Below, in pieces: positions 3,651-7,348 of a DNA stretch of 8,516 nucleotides. The position numbers and the translations under genes were made by a program. The notes under the pieces are model-generated. The model worked only from the letters and a program-made list of their open reading frames with translations. It was not told the origin of the DNA and ran no database searches. Origin of the DNA: a bacterium (GTDB lineage Bacteria; Cyanobacteriota; Vampirovibrionia; Obscuribacterales; Obscuribacteraceae); NCBI GenBank assembly GCA_030431355.1, contig JAUIJG010000221.1:1-8516 (forward strand), in the 5' to 3' direction. How positions within the stretch are numbered: position 1 is the stretch's first letter; each line of letters starts with the position of its first letter.

Positions 3651-4100
3651 TCAGCCTTTCCTCTTGTGAGGTACCGGCATCCAGCGTCGTTTCTTGAACG
3701 GGATGACACCGGTGAGGGTGGCAGGCGCGAAGGCGAGGATAAATATCATCAGACCGGCAAGGATCGGTATGTCGACTTGCAGGCTGGCCGGGAAAAAGAA
3801 ATGGTGGATCAGGACAGCAAGTACGGATACCTTGGCGAAGGCAAGGTATTGAAGCATCTTTCCTGTCTGGGCCAGGTTGAAAATAGTGCGCAGGATCATG
3901 GTCGAAAAGATTCCGAGCACCAGGCTTGTCATGGCGACGGAGAGAACCAGACCGATTGAACCGGCAAGAGAAGCTGAGAGGCTGGCTCCAATTCCGAAGA
4001 AGAGGACCAGGGCGGAACTCAGGACAAAGAATGCGTATGTTTTGAAGAAGTGAAGCAGGGGGTTTCCGTGGGGTGTCTTAGGCATTTTCCATCTAGGCAT
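3651..4100 (-). CDS. Four-helix membrane protein of unknown function, first gene of the DyP operon
   Basis: A 149-residue protein with about four hydrophobic segments (roughly 20-42, 45-75, 83-103, 111-134). Its basic N-terminus (MPRWKMPK) and basic C-terminus (KKRRW...HKRKG) both point to the cytoplasm. I do not recognise the family. Two adjacent histidines (99-100) lie in the third helix and another (His12) near the N-terminus; whether they bind heme is unknown. The ATG at 4100 has GAAGGAC about 7 nt upstream. The stop is 25 bp before the ferredoxin start, so these genes are almost certainly co-transcribed. By position it may be a membrane redox or docking partner for the ferredoxin and the anchored peroxidase, but nothing in the sequence proves it. 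Confidence 0.85.
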   Translation of the reverse strand: MPRWKMPKTPHGNPLLHFFKTYAFFVLSSALVLFFGIGASLSASLAGSIGLVLSVAMTSLVLGIFSTMILRTIFNLAQTGKMLQYLAFAKVSVLAVLIHHFFFPASLQVDIPILAGLMIFILAFAPATLTGVIPFKKRRWMPVPHKRKG

Positions 4101-4569: not shown

Positions 4570-4636
4570 CTTTCCTTTTCCTCTTCTCCTCTCCTTCCTT
4601 CCTTCCCTTCCCTTCCCTTCCCTCTCTTTTTCTTTC
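4570..4636. repeat. 67-nt uninterrupted polypyrimidine tract
   Basis: Every base from 4570 to 4636 on the plus strand is C or T. The tract includes repeated CCTTC/CCCTTC blocks. Homopurine-homopyrimidine runs of this length with mirror-like internal repeats can form triplex (H-DNA) structures and can slip during replication. It lies 18 bp before the G-rich hexamer repeat. Confidence 0.9.
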
Positions 4637-4654
4637 GGTCGATGCGGCGTGATT

Positions 4655-4791
4655 GTCAGGGTCAGGGTCAGGGTCGGGGTCAGGGTCGGATCGGGGTCAG
4701 GGTCGGAGTCGGGGTCAGGGTCAGGGTCGGAGTCGGAGTCGGGGTCGGGGTCAGGGTCGGGGTCGGGGTCGGAGTCGGATCGGTTCCGTAC
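4655..4791. repeat. Degenerate G-rich hexamer tandem repeat (GGGTCR)n with G-quadruplex potential
   Basis: About 22 units of six bases, mostly GGGTCA, GGGTCG and GAGTCG, with a 5-nt unit (GATCG) near 4689 that shifts the register once. Many runs of three or four G are spaced by TCA or TC, close to the textbook pattern for intramolecular G-quadruplexes. On the complementary strand the repeat reads as Asp-Pro/Asp-Ser dipeptides, and on the plus strand as Gly-Ser or Arg-Gly, which explains the long spurious open frames here. No ribosome binding site or credible start leads into it. Confidence 0.9.
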
Positions 4792-4820
4792 CGGTTCAGT
4801 GCAGAGAACAGTTTGGGTCC

Positions 4821-5180
4821 GGGGAGGAATATGCCGGAATGGCATAGGAACTAGCGAATCTGTATGCCAAAGTGGCATAAAGCGGCGGGGTCGGGGAGGA
4901 ATATGCCGGAATGGCATAAGAATTGGCGGATCTGTATGCCAAAGTGGCATAAATGCAGTGGTCCGGGGAGGAATATGCCGGAATGGCATAAGAATTGGCG
5001 GATCTGTATGCCAAAGTGGCATAAAGCGGCGGGGTCGGGGAGGAATATGCCGGAATGGCATAGGAACTAGCGGATTTGTATGCCAACGTGGCATAAATGC
5101 AGTGGTCCGGGGAGGAATATGCCGGAATGGCATAGGAACTAGCGGATTTGTATGCCAAAGTGGCATAAAGCAGCGGGCAT
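4821..5180. repeat. Five tandem 72-bp units carrying ten TATGCC-N5-GGCATA palindromes
   Basis: Units begin with GGGGAGG at 4821, 4893, 4965, 5037 and 5109, exactly 72 bp apart. Each has two 17-bp palindromes. The first is always TATGCCGGAATGGCATA (starts 4830, 4902, 4974, 5046, 5118). The second is TATGCCAAAGTGGCATA in four units and has AACGT as its centre in unit 4 (starts 4863, 4935, 5007, 5079, 5151). Palindrome starts alternate 33 and 39 bp apart throughout. Unit ends alternate between AAGCGGCGGGGTC (units 1, 3) and AATGCAGTGGTCC (units 2, 4), giving a 144-bp higher-order period. Because 72 is a multiple of three, both strands stay open and encode a 24-residue repeat, but the frames start only at TTG codons and look non-proteinaceous. 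The unit resembles an iteron or multi-site protein-binding array; its function is unknown. Confidence 0.95.
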
Positions 5181-5210
5181 GGCATGGGCATAAGAGCGGC
5201 GGGCATGCGC

Positions 5211-5248
5211 TGGGCGTGGCTTGTGCAGGGCTTGGGCGTGGCTTGTGC
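5211..5248. repeat. Two 16-bp direct repeats, 22-bp period
   Basis: TGGGCGTGGCTTGTGC occurs at 5211-5226 and again at 5233-5248. It follows a degraded GGCATGGGCATA stretch (about 5176-5191) that looks like a decayed end of the 72-bp array. No function is evident. Confidence 0.8.
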
Positions 5249-5300
5249 TCAGGTCTCGTTTGGGCATGAAATACTATAAGATATCGTAAATGCGTTGAAA

Positions 5301-5339
5301 TTAAAAAGCACAGGAGTATCGCCAGGCGGCTCCTGTGCT
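5301..5339 (-). terminator. Rho-independent terminator, minus strand
   Basis: Arms 5330-5339 and 5307-5316 (AGCACAGGAG with CTCCTGTGCT) form a perfect 10-bp GC-rich stem around a 13-nt loop. On the minus strand it is followed directly by TTTTTAATTT. The plus strand has no T-run after it. The nearest upstream minus-strand gene is the FAD oxidoreductase ending at 5581, so its message would carry about 240 nt of 3' sequence. Confidence 0.85.
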
Positions 5340-5580: not shown

Positions 5581-6549
5581 TTAGCCACCAAAGAGTCTTG
5601 CGATTTCTTTGGCGATACCGTGGGACGTGATGTATCCAGTGCGGTGGTGACCGTAGTTGTGAATAAGCGTGCGTCCGTCCTTGAGCTGAACCGGTTCCAT
5701 GCGGACCTGGTTTCGCATCGGGCAGAGGATTCGGCGAGCACTGACGATGTCGTCGGCGGTCACTTTCAACTCAGGCACCATTCGGGAGCAGCGCTCGAGA
5801 ATGTCTCTGGTGCTCTTCTCGTCCACTTCGACGGACTGATTGTCCTCGTCGTAGACGGTGCCGAGTTTGATGAACTTGCCGTGGGGTACGACATAGGCAG
5901 GTTTGTTCGGACCCTCTTCGTCGACGAAGGCACGGTCAAACTTGGTTTTGTTCTTGATGGTGATTACTTGCAGGCGGGCGGGTCGGAGTTCGGAATCGGT
6001 GGACAATTCCAATGTGCCCAAACCGGTGCAGTTGATTACCAGGTCGAATTCCTTGGGGAAATCAACCAGGTTTTCAATCTTCTTCTTCTCGAACTTTCCA
6101 CCTTCCCGGGCGACGTTGTAACGCAACCAGGGGAGGTATCCGGCGGGGTCGATGACCGGTGCTTTGTCTAGCACCCAGGCAGCGGCGTATTCGTCGGCAT
6201 ACTCATCGGCTTCGGCCCGGCGCACCATCGCGTATTCGTTGGCGAACCAGGGTTTTTCGTCCGTTCCGGCGAGCATGTAGATGGGAAGCATCGAGACTCC
6301 CGAGTTGGGCACTTCTGCGAGCGCTTTGAAAACCTTCAAGCTGTAATTCGCCCATCCCTCGACACGCTGGTCGGCCTTTTCTCTCAAGGGCAACCACAGT
6401 GCGAACGCATCGTGGGAGTTGGAGGGGAATTCACCATCGGCTTCTCTGGACCAAATGGTGACTTCATGGTCTGTCGATTGCAAGATAGTCATTGCAGTCG
6501 TCAGTCCGGAAACACCAGAGCCAAGTACTAGAATCCGTAGGTTTTTCAT
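5581..6549 (-). CDS. FAD-dependent oxidoreductase, D-amino-acid oxidase family
   Basis: A 322-residue flavoprotein of the DAAO/DASOX type, which oxidises the amine of D-amino or related acids to an imino acid with release of H2O2. The N-terminal dinucleotide-binding motif is ILVLGSGVSGL (7-17), with GxGxxG at 10-15. NCTGLG (173-178) matches the second FAD-contacting segment (NCTG) of the family. Near the C-terminus, VRMEPV carries Arg283, which aligns with the substrate-carboxylate arginine of pig DAAO. HNYGHHRTGY (297-306) replaces the usual HNYGHGGxG, so the glycine pair next to the flavin is His-Arg. Start choice: the ATG at 6549 directly precedes the FAD fold and has AGAGGTG 4 nt upstream. 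The frame stays open to 6732, but the extra 61 residues have no family counterpart. Substrate is unknown. It appears monocistronic, with the terminator at 5301-5339. Confidence 0.9.
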   Translation of the reverse strand: MKNLRILVLGSGVSGLTTAMTILQSTDHEVTIWSREADGEFPSNSHDAFALWLPLREKADQRVEGWANYSLKVFKALAEVPNSGVSMLPIYMLAGTDEKPWFANEYAMVRRAEADEYADEYAAAWVLDKAPVIDPAGYLPWLRYNVAREGGKFEKKKIENLVDFPKEFDLVINCTGLGTLELSTDSELRPARLQVITIKNKTKFDRAFVDEEGPNKPAYVVPHGKFIKLGTVYDEDNQSVEVDEKSTRDILERCSRMVPELKVTADDIVSARRILCPMRNQVRMEPVQLKDGRTLIHNYGHHRTGYITSHGIAKEIARLFGG

Positions 6550-7067
6550 ATGCACCTCTGTAGGTATATGTGTCGAGTCTTCTTGTAGGGAAGTCTCGAC
6601 GGATTGTGGAAAAATGTTTCCGCTTGCCAGCTTGTGGGTCGGAAACGTCATTCGCTTGACTGCTCTAAATTCGGCCAATTCCAAATCAGCGCAGTTACTC
6701 AGCCAGTGCTTTTGTTCTTCCGGACGGAACATGCTCCATACGGTGTGTTTCCCCTAATCGATCGAATATCGAAAAGTTGAATTTGCGCTGGTTCTGAGTA
6801 GACGCCTGGTGGTTGTTAAGGAAAATGTCTCCGAAAAATTAGAATTTCATGAAAGATACGTTCACCCTAATAATAGTGATCTATTTAAGGCAACTCTTGT
6901 CATGCCTGTTTCTTGAAAACACTCTTTTTTGAGCTGATATTTCACTTTGGCACCATCTGTAGAGGCTTGAGCTTATTTTTGGAGGAGTTATCGGTGGGGG
7001 TAAAACCTATTGTCAGCAGGCATTTGCACCGGATTATCTCCTTAAATTGATGGATTTTGACCGTTGG
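6550..7067. other. Divergent intergenic region, no confident gene
   Basis: This begins the roughly 1.1-kb gap between the divergently transcribed oxidoreductase and stress-protein genes. An inverted repeat TCGAT-cgaat-ATCGA (6758-6772), about 210 bp before the oxidoreductase start, could be an operator. On the plus strand, 6758-6916 is open for 52 codons (includes RLVVVKENVSEKLEFHERY) with only a GTG as possible start. Another plus-strand frame (6963-7136) is open for 57 codons but has no proper start. These may be gene remnants or chance; no family is recognised. Confidence 0.4.
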
Positions 7068-7348
7068 CCAGCCTTGGCTAGCAAAGAGGAAGGCTGGATA
7101 TCGAAAGAATTCGCTTGGCTAGGCAAACCAGACTAGCCAAGGGGAGGACAGCTGATACTCTTGCTGGTGAGCATTCTCGGAGCATCTATTGCGGCTGGGC
7201 TAGCCAAGGGGTATGGTGGCAACTGAGTTTATTTTGCGACCAGATTCAAATGAAAAAGCAATCGACCGGATCAAAGCCTTTTCTAATCCCACAGCTATAG
7301 AAAAGAGATCAACGGTCGATTGCGCAGACAGTACTTAGAAAGTACTGT
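7068..7348. other. Cluster of four stem-loops, candidate structured RNA or DNA
   Basis: Four inverted repeats follow one another. (a) CCAGCCTT 7068-7075 with AAGGCTGG 7090-7097. (b) CTTGGCTAG 7114-7122 with CTAGCCAAG 7133-7141. (c) A 66-nt hairpin, 7258-7323: 11-bp outer stem, 4-bp GATC stem, then 8-bp CTTTTCTA/TAGAAAAG. (d) ACAGTACT 7328-7335 with AGTACTGT 7341-7348, followed on the plus strand by TTATTTTTC. The motif CTAGCCAAGG or its complement occurs at 7072-7081 (inverted), 7114-7122 (inverted, 9 bp), 7133-7142 and 7200-7209. A 41-codon frame (ATG 7213 to TAG 7338, begins MVATEFILRPDSNEKAIDRI) overlaps the last two hairpins. The cluster lies 290 nt before the stress-protein start. Its role is unknown. 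Confidence 0.5.

What the first reader, a model, noticed from the sequence alone, without database searches (positions are those of the whole stretch)
4821..5180. Ten-palindrome, 72-bp tandem array with strict 33/39-bp alternation
Five exact 72-bp units carry two kinds of TATGCC-N5-GGCATA palindrome. The 6-bp arms never vary in ten copies while linkers and one spacer do, and unit ends alternate in a 144-bp higher-order pattern. Conserved arms with drifting linkers suggest selection for a dimeric protein's sites or for cruciforms. It could be a replication or partition locus (iteron or parS-like array), a nucleoid-protein cluster, or a mobile or expanding satellite. The sequence does not match a CRISPR or REP/BIME element that I know.
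Basis: partly seen in the sequence, partly recalled or inferred. Interest (0 to 1): 0.7.

Follow-up and report, generated by a model that had tools for sequence, protein, structure and literature searches.

The report
Intergenic tandem array of twin palindromes
A stretch of DNA between two bacterial genes holds five copies of a 72-letter repeat, each carrying two identical-armed palindromes; it is a real, rare, probably non-coding array whose palindromes look held fixed, perhaps as landing sites for a paired protein, but what it does is not shown.

Summary
Ten exact TATGCC-N5-GGCATA dyads lie at 4830-5167 (shuffles, up to 2 mismatches: mean 0.14) in five units of exactly 72 bp (4816-5175). The units are not identical: they differ pairwise at 3-13 positions. 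None of the 14 variable columns falls in the 24 arm columns. The two dyads of a unit share 12 of 12 arm bases but 6 of 21 neighbouring bases. Two protein searches found one relative: P0121, the translation of another five-unit array, which keeps 40 of 40 arm-derived residues while 11 of 16 other residue columns vary. It shares the array and GC-rich tail, not the hexamer flank. Coding looks unlikely. Plasmid, phage and viral scans, and one exact-arm scan of genome contigs, found no such array. Best reading: a lineage-restricted intergenic minisatellite whose dyads are under sequence-specific constraint, most likely as sites for a dimeric DNA-binding protein. A neutral satellite and an untagged REP-like hairpin cluster remain live rivals. 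The window's genome is not held, so the decisive genome-wide count could not be done.

The parts
4816..5175 (.). Five 72-bp tandem units, each with dyad A and dyad B separated by 16 bp (A to B) and 22 bp (B to next A)
4830..4846 (.). Dyad A, unit 1 (TATGCC-GGAAT-GGCATA); further A copies at 4902-4918, 4974-4990, 5046-5062, 5118-5134
4863..4879 (.). Dyad B, unit 1 (TATGCC-AAAGT-GGCATA); further B copies at 4935-4951, 5007-5023, 5079-5095 (loop AACGT), 5151-5167
5168..5250 (.). GC-rich degenerate tail with one stray GGCATA half-site (5187); pieces of it match the P0121 array's flank in three reading frames
4655..4778 (.). Left-hand flank: GTCRGG/GTCGGR hexamer array, G-quadruplex-like pattern on the + strand; not seen in the residues that follow the array in P0121
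5307..5339 (-). 10-bp perfect hairpin (13-nt loop) ending in TTTTT on the minus strand: terminator-like, between the DAO gene and the array
   Evidence: for the arms; T-run read. The terminator scan does not list it; that scan takes loops of 3-8 only
5581..6549 (-). FAD-dependent oxidoreductase (DAO) gene; its 3' end faces the array
3651..4100 (-). ORF of 149 aa without a family match at the cut-offs; next gene on the other side, its start 716 bp from the array

Best explanation
This is a non-coding, intergenic minisatellite (as far as sequence can show it). It was amplified by unequal recombination or slippage of a 72-bp unit (inferred from the mosaic of unit variants). Each unit carries two copies of one 17-bp dyad whose arms are held in sequence (supported, not proven). 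Identical arms, variable loops and linkers, and no compensating arm changes fit sites for a homodimeric DNA-binding protein better than a structure-only hairpin. Tandem amplification would then give a cluster of up to ten dimer sites (inferred). The likely use is local loading or titration of a regulator or nucleoid-type protein in an otherwise silent gap between a terminator and the next promoter (speculative).
For: Ten exact dyads against a shuffle mean of 0.14. 0 of 14 variable nucleotide columns in arms: P = 0.0016 if columns are independent, 0.020 for nine and 0.079 for six pooled events. A against B in the majority unit: 12 of 12 arm bases but 6 of 21 other bases. P0121: arm residues Y-A..A-Y kept in 10 of 10 dyads, while 11 of 16 other residue columns vary (P = 0.0017 if columns are independent). 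No open frame behaves clearly as coding.
Against: No binding protein was identified. The spacings of 33 and 39 bp (3.1 and 3.7 turns at 10.5 bp) put A and B on different faces of the helix. The dyads lie 730-1067 bp upstream of the next gene start, far for a promoter operator. Seven of the 11 variable residue columns vary in the window too, so the window and P0121 are not independent tests. Only one relative was found, known through its translation only, so third codon positions are unseen. Occurrence elsewhere in the genome is unknown.
Confidence: 0.42

Rival explanations
1. Neutral satellite. A palindrome-bearing intergenic sequence was amplified recently; arms look fixed only because the copies are young and homogenised.
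For: The stretch from about 4570 to 5250 is repetitive: a polypyrimidine run, hexamers, the 72-mers and a degenerate tail. The unit variants form a mosaic, as in unequal exchange. The array was rarely found: one relative in two protein searches and no array in the collection scans. With linked changes pooled, arm invariance in the window is P = 0.020-0.079.
Against: The two dyads of a unit share the arms but not their surroundings, and a second array keeps the arm residues while 2 of its 5 A loops change.
Confidence: 0.3
2. Untagged REP-like or RNA/ssDNA hairpin cluster: short hairpins with the same stem and two loops, a heterodimer reiterated in tandem with its flanks.
For: Folds beyond shuffles: array z -5.7 (DNA, +), -5.1 (RNA, +) and -7.0 (RNA, -); four single hairpins -7.3 to -8.9 kcal/mol. 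PMC3733652 (passages) describes REP heterodimers and clusters of dimers reiterated with flanking DNA. P0121 shows a second left flank.
Against: No GTAG or CGTC tag beside the stems. No compensating arm changes. No Rfam match. Such z-scores would be expected of any palindrome array. No transposase family among the nine ORFs scanned.
Confidence: 0.18
3. Coding repeat: a 24-residue repeat protein read on the minus strand (frame YATLAY...YAIPAY).
For: Three of six frames are stop-free over the array; the 136-aa frame starts with ATG; P0121 was predicted in the same frame, and the longest alignment of P0121 to the window spans tail and array in that one frame (153 columns, 73% identity, one 3-residue gap). 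The 136-aa frame has 3 of 7 synonymous changes.
Against: At least three stop-free frames arise in 355 of 3000 column-permuted arrays. The two longest ORFs have 0 of 7 synonymous changes, and the highest counts (4, 4 and 5 of 7) fall in the three frames that contain stops. Other pieces of the P0121 tail match the window in two other frames, though the tail is itself repetitive. No Shine-Dalgarno-like sequence before the ATG (read); no Pfam or NCBIfam match at the cut-offs.
Confidence: 0.07
4. Partition or replication array (sopC- or iteron-like).
For: Architecture resembles F plasmid parS/sopC: tandem repeats with inverted repeats (PMC6238139, passages).
Against: No parA, parB or rep family among the ORFs scanned; no plasmid match.
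Confidence: 0.03

Closest known systems
F plasmid sopC / parS-F centromere (PMC6238139, passages seen)
   Same: Tandem direct repeats carrying inverted repeats; about ten dimer sites in all
   Different: parS-F has twelve 43-bp repeats with ten 16-bp inverted repeats and a ParB partner; here two dyads per 72 bp, and no par gene recognised in the window
REP / GTAG- and CGTC-tagged palindrome clusters, heterodimers (PMC3733652, passages seen)
   Same: Short intergenic hairpins in pairs with the same stem and different loops, reiterated in tandem with flanks
   Different: No GTAG or CGTC tag; dispersal not testable; the two dyads have unrelated flanks
PARCEL palindromic amphipathic coding repeats (PMC2996958, abstract and passages seen)
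   Same: Tandem repeat of about 75 nt with dyad symmetry in the DNA
   Different: PARCELs encode a 25-residue DUF285-type motif; the ORFs here match no Pfam family at its cut-off and do not behave clearly as coding
Bacterial minisatellites / VNTR loci (recalled) and G-rich intergenic repeats (PMC4692102, passages seen, for GGGNATC-type repeats in Xanthomonas and Nostoc)
   Same: Intergenic tandem repeats; the neighbouring hexamer array is G-rich in the same way
   Different: The 72-bp unit is long and built around two dyads

Membership tests
Tagged REP elements | GTAG or CGTC unpaired tag at one end of the hairpin | tested here: not met
   Flanks of all ten dyads printed and read; neither tag adjoins a stem
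Tagged REP elements | Many dispersed intergenic copies in the genome | not testable with these tools
   Genome not held; the window has no other copy at up to 2 mismatches
sopC-like centromere | Linked parA/parB genes | tested here: inconclusive
   None recognised among nine window ORFs of 38 listed or six window genes, but the window is only 8.5 kb
sopC-like centromere | Tandem repeats carrying dimer-binding dyads | tested here: inconclusive
   The architecture is there; binding was not tested
PARCEL | ORF with DUF285-type 25-residue repeats | tested here: not met
   No Pfam match at the cut-off for the three array ORFs scanned or P0121
Minisatellite / VNTR | Head-to-tail copies with variants shuffled between units | tested here: met
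Minisatellite / VNTR | Copy number differing between strains | not tested
   The only relative (P0121) also has five units
CRISPR | Identical repeats separated by unique spacers | tested here: not met
   Linkers are repeated too

The most novel reading that the evidence does not exclude
A lineage-specific DNA-binding or segregation protein of non-photosynthetic Cyanobacteriota uses clustered TATGCC-N5-GGCATA dyads as a chromosomal loading or anchoring site, a new sopC-like landmark that spreads as a movable 72-bp satellite with its GC-rich tail.
Probability: 0.08. Interest if true: 0.7.

Novelty: new member of a known kind. Interest (0 to 1): 0.3.

Why it matters
If the dyads are protein sites, the array offers a defined bait for finding an unknown DNA-binding protein in a group that, as far as I recall, has few or no cultured members. 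It would also show a binding cluster growing by satellite amplification. If neutral, it is an ordinary hypervariable intergenic repeat, useful at most as a strain marker.

Tried and rejected
Whole-genome count of the dyad: impossible, no genome is held. Paired-dyad scan (exact arms, 8-38 nt between dyads) of genome contigs: 2 stretches, in a Proteobacteria and a Myxococcales MAG by their titles; both were read and show GTATGCCC...GGGCATA hairpin pairs without the 72-bp unit. The same scan of viral contigs: 1 stretch, read, without the unit. P0121 in viral contigs: 2 stretches matched a peptide pattern, 0 confirmed. Array in plasmids and phages, distant mode: no match (BLAST's low-complexity filter was on). 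P0121 by tblastn in plasmids and phages: no match. Whole window against plasmids, near mode: no match. Rfam and tRNA: none. An outer stem GGTCCG/CGGATC around dyad A in some unit folds was looked at by eye and dropped: unit variants weaken it rather than compensate. Paper searches: seven, of which only the listings were seen, and these only in part (for example 15 of 65, 20 of 117, 8 of 480); no listed title pointed to this array. The listed paper that looked relevant was the PARCEL paper, where the half-site strings stand in a Vibrionales palindrome.

Full report
WHAT IS THERE. The ten dyads are real: exact TATGCC-N5-GGCATA at 4830, 4863, 4902, 4935, 4974, 5007, 5046, 5079, 5118 and 5151, and no others in the window even with two mismatches (200 shuffles: mean 0.14, largest 2). 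They sit in five units of exactly 72 bp, 4816-5175. The units are similar, not identical: 3 to 13 differences per pair. Eight columns around the unit ends alternate with a 144-bp period, but three linked positions after dyad A group units 1,4,5 against 2,3, so the pattern is a mosaic.

SURROUNDINGS. The array lies in a 1.5-kb gap between the 3' end of an FAD-dependent oxidoreductase gene (5581-6549, minus; PF01266 E 2e-30 on the longer ORF 5581-6732) and the start of a 149-aa ORF (3651-4100, minus). Beyond that ORF come a gene weakly like 2Fe-2S ferredoxins (below NCBIfam cut-offs) and a DyP-type peroxidase-like gene (PF20628 above its cut-off, PF21105 and TIGR01413 just below theirs). A 10-bp hairpin plus T-run at 5307-5339 on the minus strand looks like a terminator (arms; T-run read). 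If it is one, the array may be untranscribed from the oxidoreductase side (inference). To the left lies a (GTCRGG)n array at 4655-4778 with 19 of 20 spacings of 6 and one of 5, and before it a polypyrimidine run; to the right a degenerate GC-rich tail. GC skew is highest here (0.38 at 4751-5250), as expected from G-rich repeats.

HOST. No genome is held for the window. I take the host to be a non-photosynthetic cyanobacteriote; this is tentative, and the finer placement near Obscuribacterales is recalled, not tested.

CODING OR NOT. Three of six frames are stop-free through the array, but at least three are in 355 of 3000 column-permuted arrays. For seven single-base variants the longest plus and minus ORFs give 0 of 7 synonymous changes, the 136-aa minus frame 3 of 7, and the three frames that contain stops 4, 4 and 5 of 7. 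The hexamer array contains a 5-bp unit that breaks frame. I regard the region as non-coding, at about 0.93.

RELATIVES. A query made of joined stretches of the window's frames found one protein at E <= 0.001 among 5061 candidates, from a database of 5.77 billion (P0121, 214 aa, ENA contig of 47,775 bp, E 6.9e-45). A shorter query at E <= 10 found the same one only, among 39 candidates. Both searches see only proteins of limited length that share short words with the query. P0121 is a translation, in the minus frame, of another array of five 72-bp units. The longest alignment to the window runs through part of the tail and the whole array in one frame (153 columns, 73% identity, one 3-residue gap); other pieces of its first 35 residues match the window's tail in two other frames. 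This speaks weakly against a conserved protein, because the tail is itself repetitive. Its last 64 residues match the window no better than E 0.44, and that match is to array residues, so the left flank differs and the hexamer array is not seen there.

CONSTRAINT. Nucleotide level, window: 14 variable columns of 72, none in the 24 arm columns, one in a loop; P = 0.0016 if all are independent, 0.020 for nine events and 0.079 for six. Within the majority unit: dyads A and B share 12 of 12 arm bases but 6 of 21 flank and loop bases, and their linkers align no better than shuffled ones (1364 of 2000 shuffles as good). Residue level, window plus P0121: 11 variable columns of 24, none among the 8 arm-derived (P = 0.0017 if independent); the same 11 vary within P0121 alone. 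The window alone has 7 variable residue columns, none arm-derived (P = 0.033), and these seven are among the 11, so this is not a fully independent test. In P0121 two of five A loops change (IP to NL or NP) while both arms stay. Arm conservation is therefore supported by three overlapping tests, none overwhelming.

HOW IT MIGHT WORK. Arms kept in sequence, with no compensating changes, point to recognition of the sequence by a two-fold symmetric protein rather than to a hairpin alone. Against a tidy operator model stand the 33/39-bp spacing, not a whole number of helical turns, and the distance of 730-1067 bp to the next gene start. Fold z-scores of -5 to -7 are what I would expect of any palindrome array and do not decide. 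I therefore favour a cluster of dimer sites amplified as a minisatellite, at 0.42, with a neutral satellite at 0.30, an untagged REP-like hairpin cluster at 0.18, coding at 0.07 and a partition or replication array at 0.03.

KNOWN KINDS. Closest in architecture is the F plasmid centromere, twelve 43-bp repeats with ten 16-bp inverted repeats bound by ParB (PMC6238139, passages); no par gene was recognised here. Closest in natural history are REP heterodimer clusters reiterated with their flanks (PMC3733652, passages); the defining tags are absent. PARCELs (PMC2996958, abstract and passages) are coding and carry DUF285-type repeats, not found here. I file it as a new, so far private, palindrome-bearing minisatellite.

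LIMITS. One relative, seen only as protein. No genome-wide count. The exact-arm scan of genome contigs (one genome for each of 84,980 species by the tool's description) would miss arrays with changed arms or other spacing. Copy number in a short-read assembly may be wrong, although the units differ and P0121 also has five.

Noticed in passing
4655-4778: GTCRGG/GTCGGR hexamer array, 19 of 20 spacings of 6 bp, matching a G-quadruplex pattern at 4659-4702 and 4741-4768; preceded by a CCTTCC-type polypyrimidine run at about 4570-4630.
   Followed up: partly
7072-7208: Second family of dyads, CTTGGCTAG / CTAGCCAAG, in the intergenic region upstream of the universal stress protein gene.
   Followed up: no
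1532-1577: 19-bp inverted repeat, 89% complementary, in the gap between the thioredoxin-domain gene and the DyP-like gene.
   Followed up: no
121-1116: ORF joining a membrane part resembling DUF5134 (28.4 bits, just under its cut-off of 29) to a C-terminal thioredoxin domain.
   Followed up: no
L001:6890-7060: Two GTATGCCC-AAC-GGGCATA hairpins and one GTATGCGC-AAC-GCGCATA variant, among ACGTGTC-type inverted repeats, in a roe deer omasum MAG; REP-like by eye, without the window's unit.
   Followed up: no
4836-4840 (loop of dyad A) against P0121: One A loop of P0121 changes from IP to NL in translation. If the arms are intact, that would turn the possible G-U loop-closing pair of dyad A into A-U on the + strand; a single case seen only as protein, hint only.
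   Followed up: no
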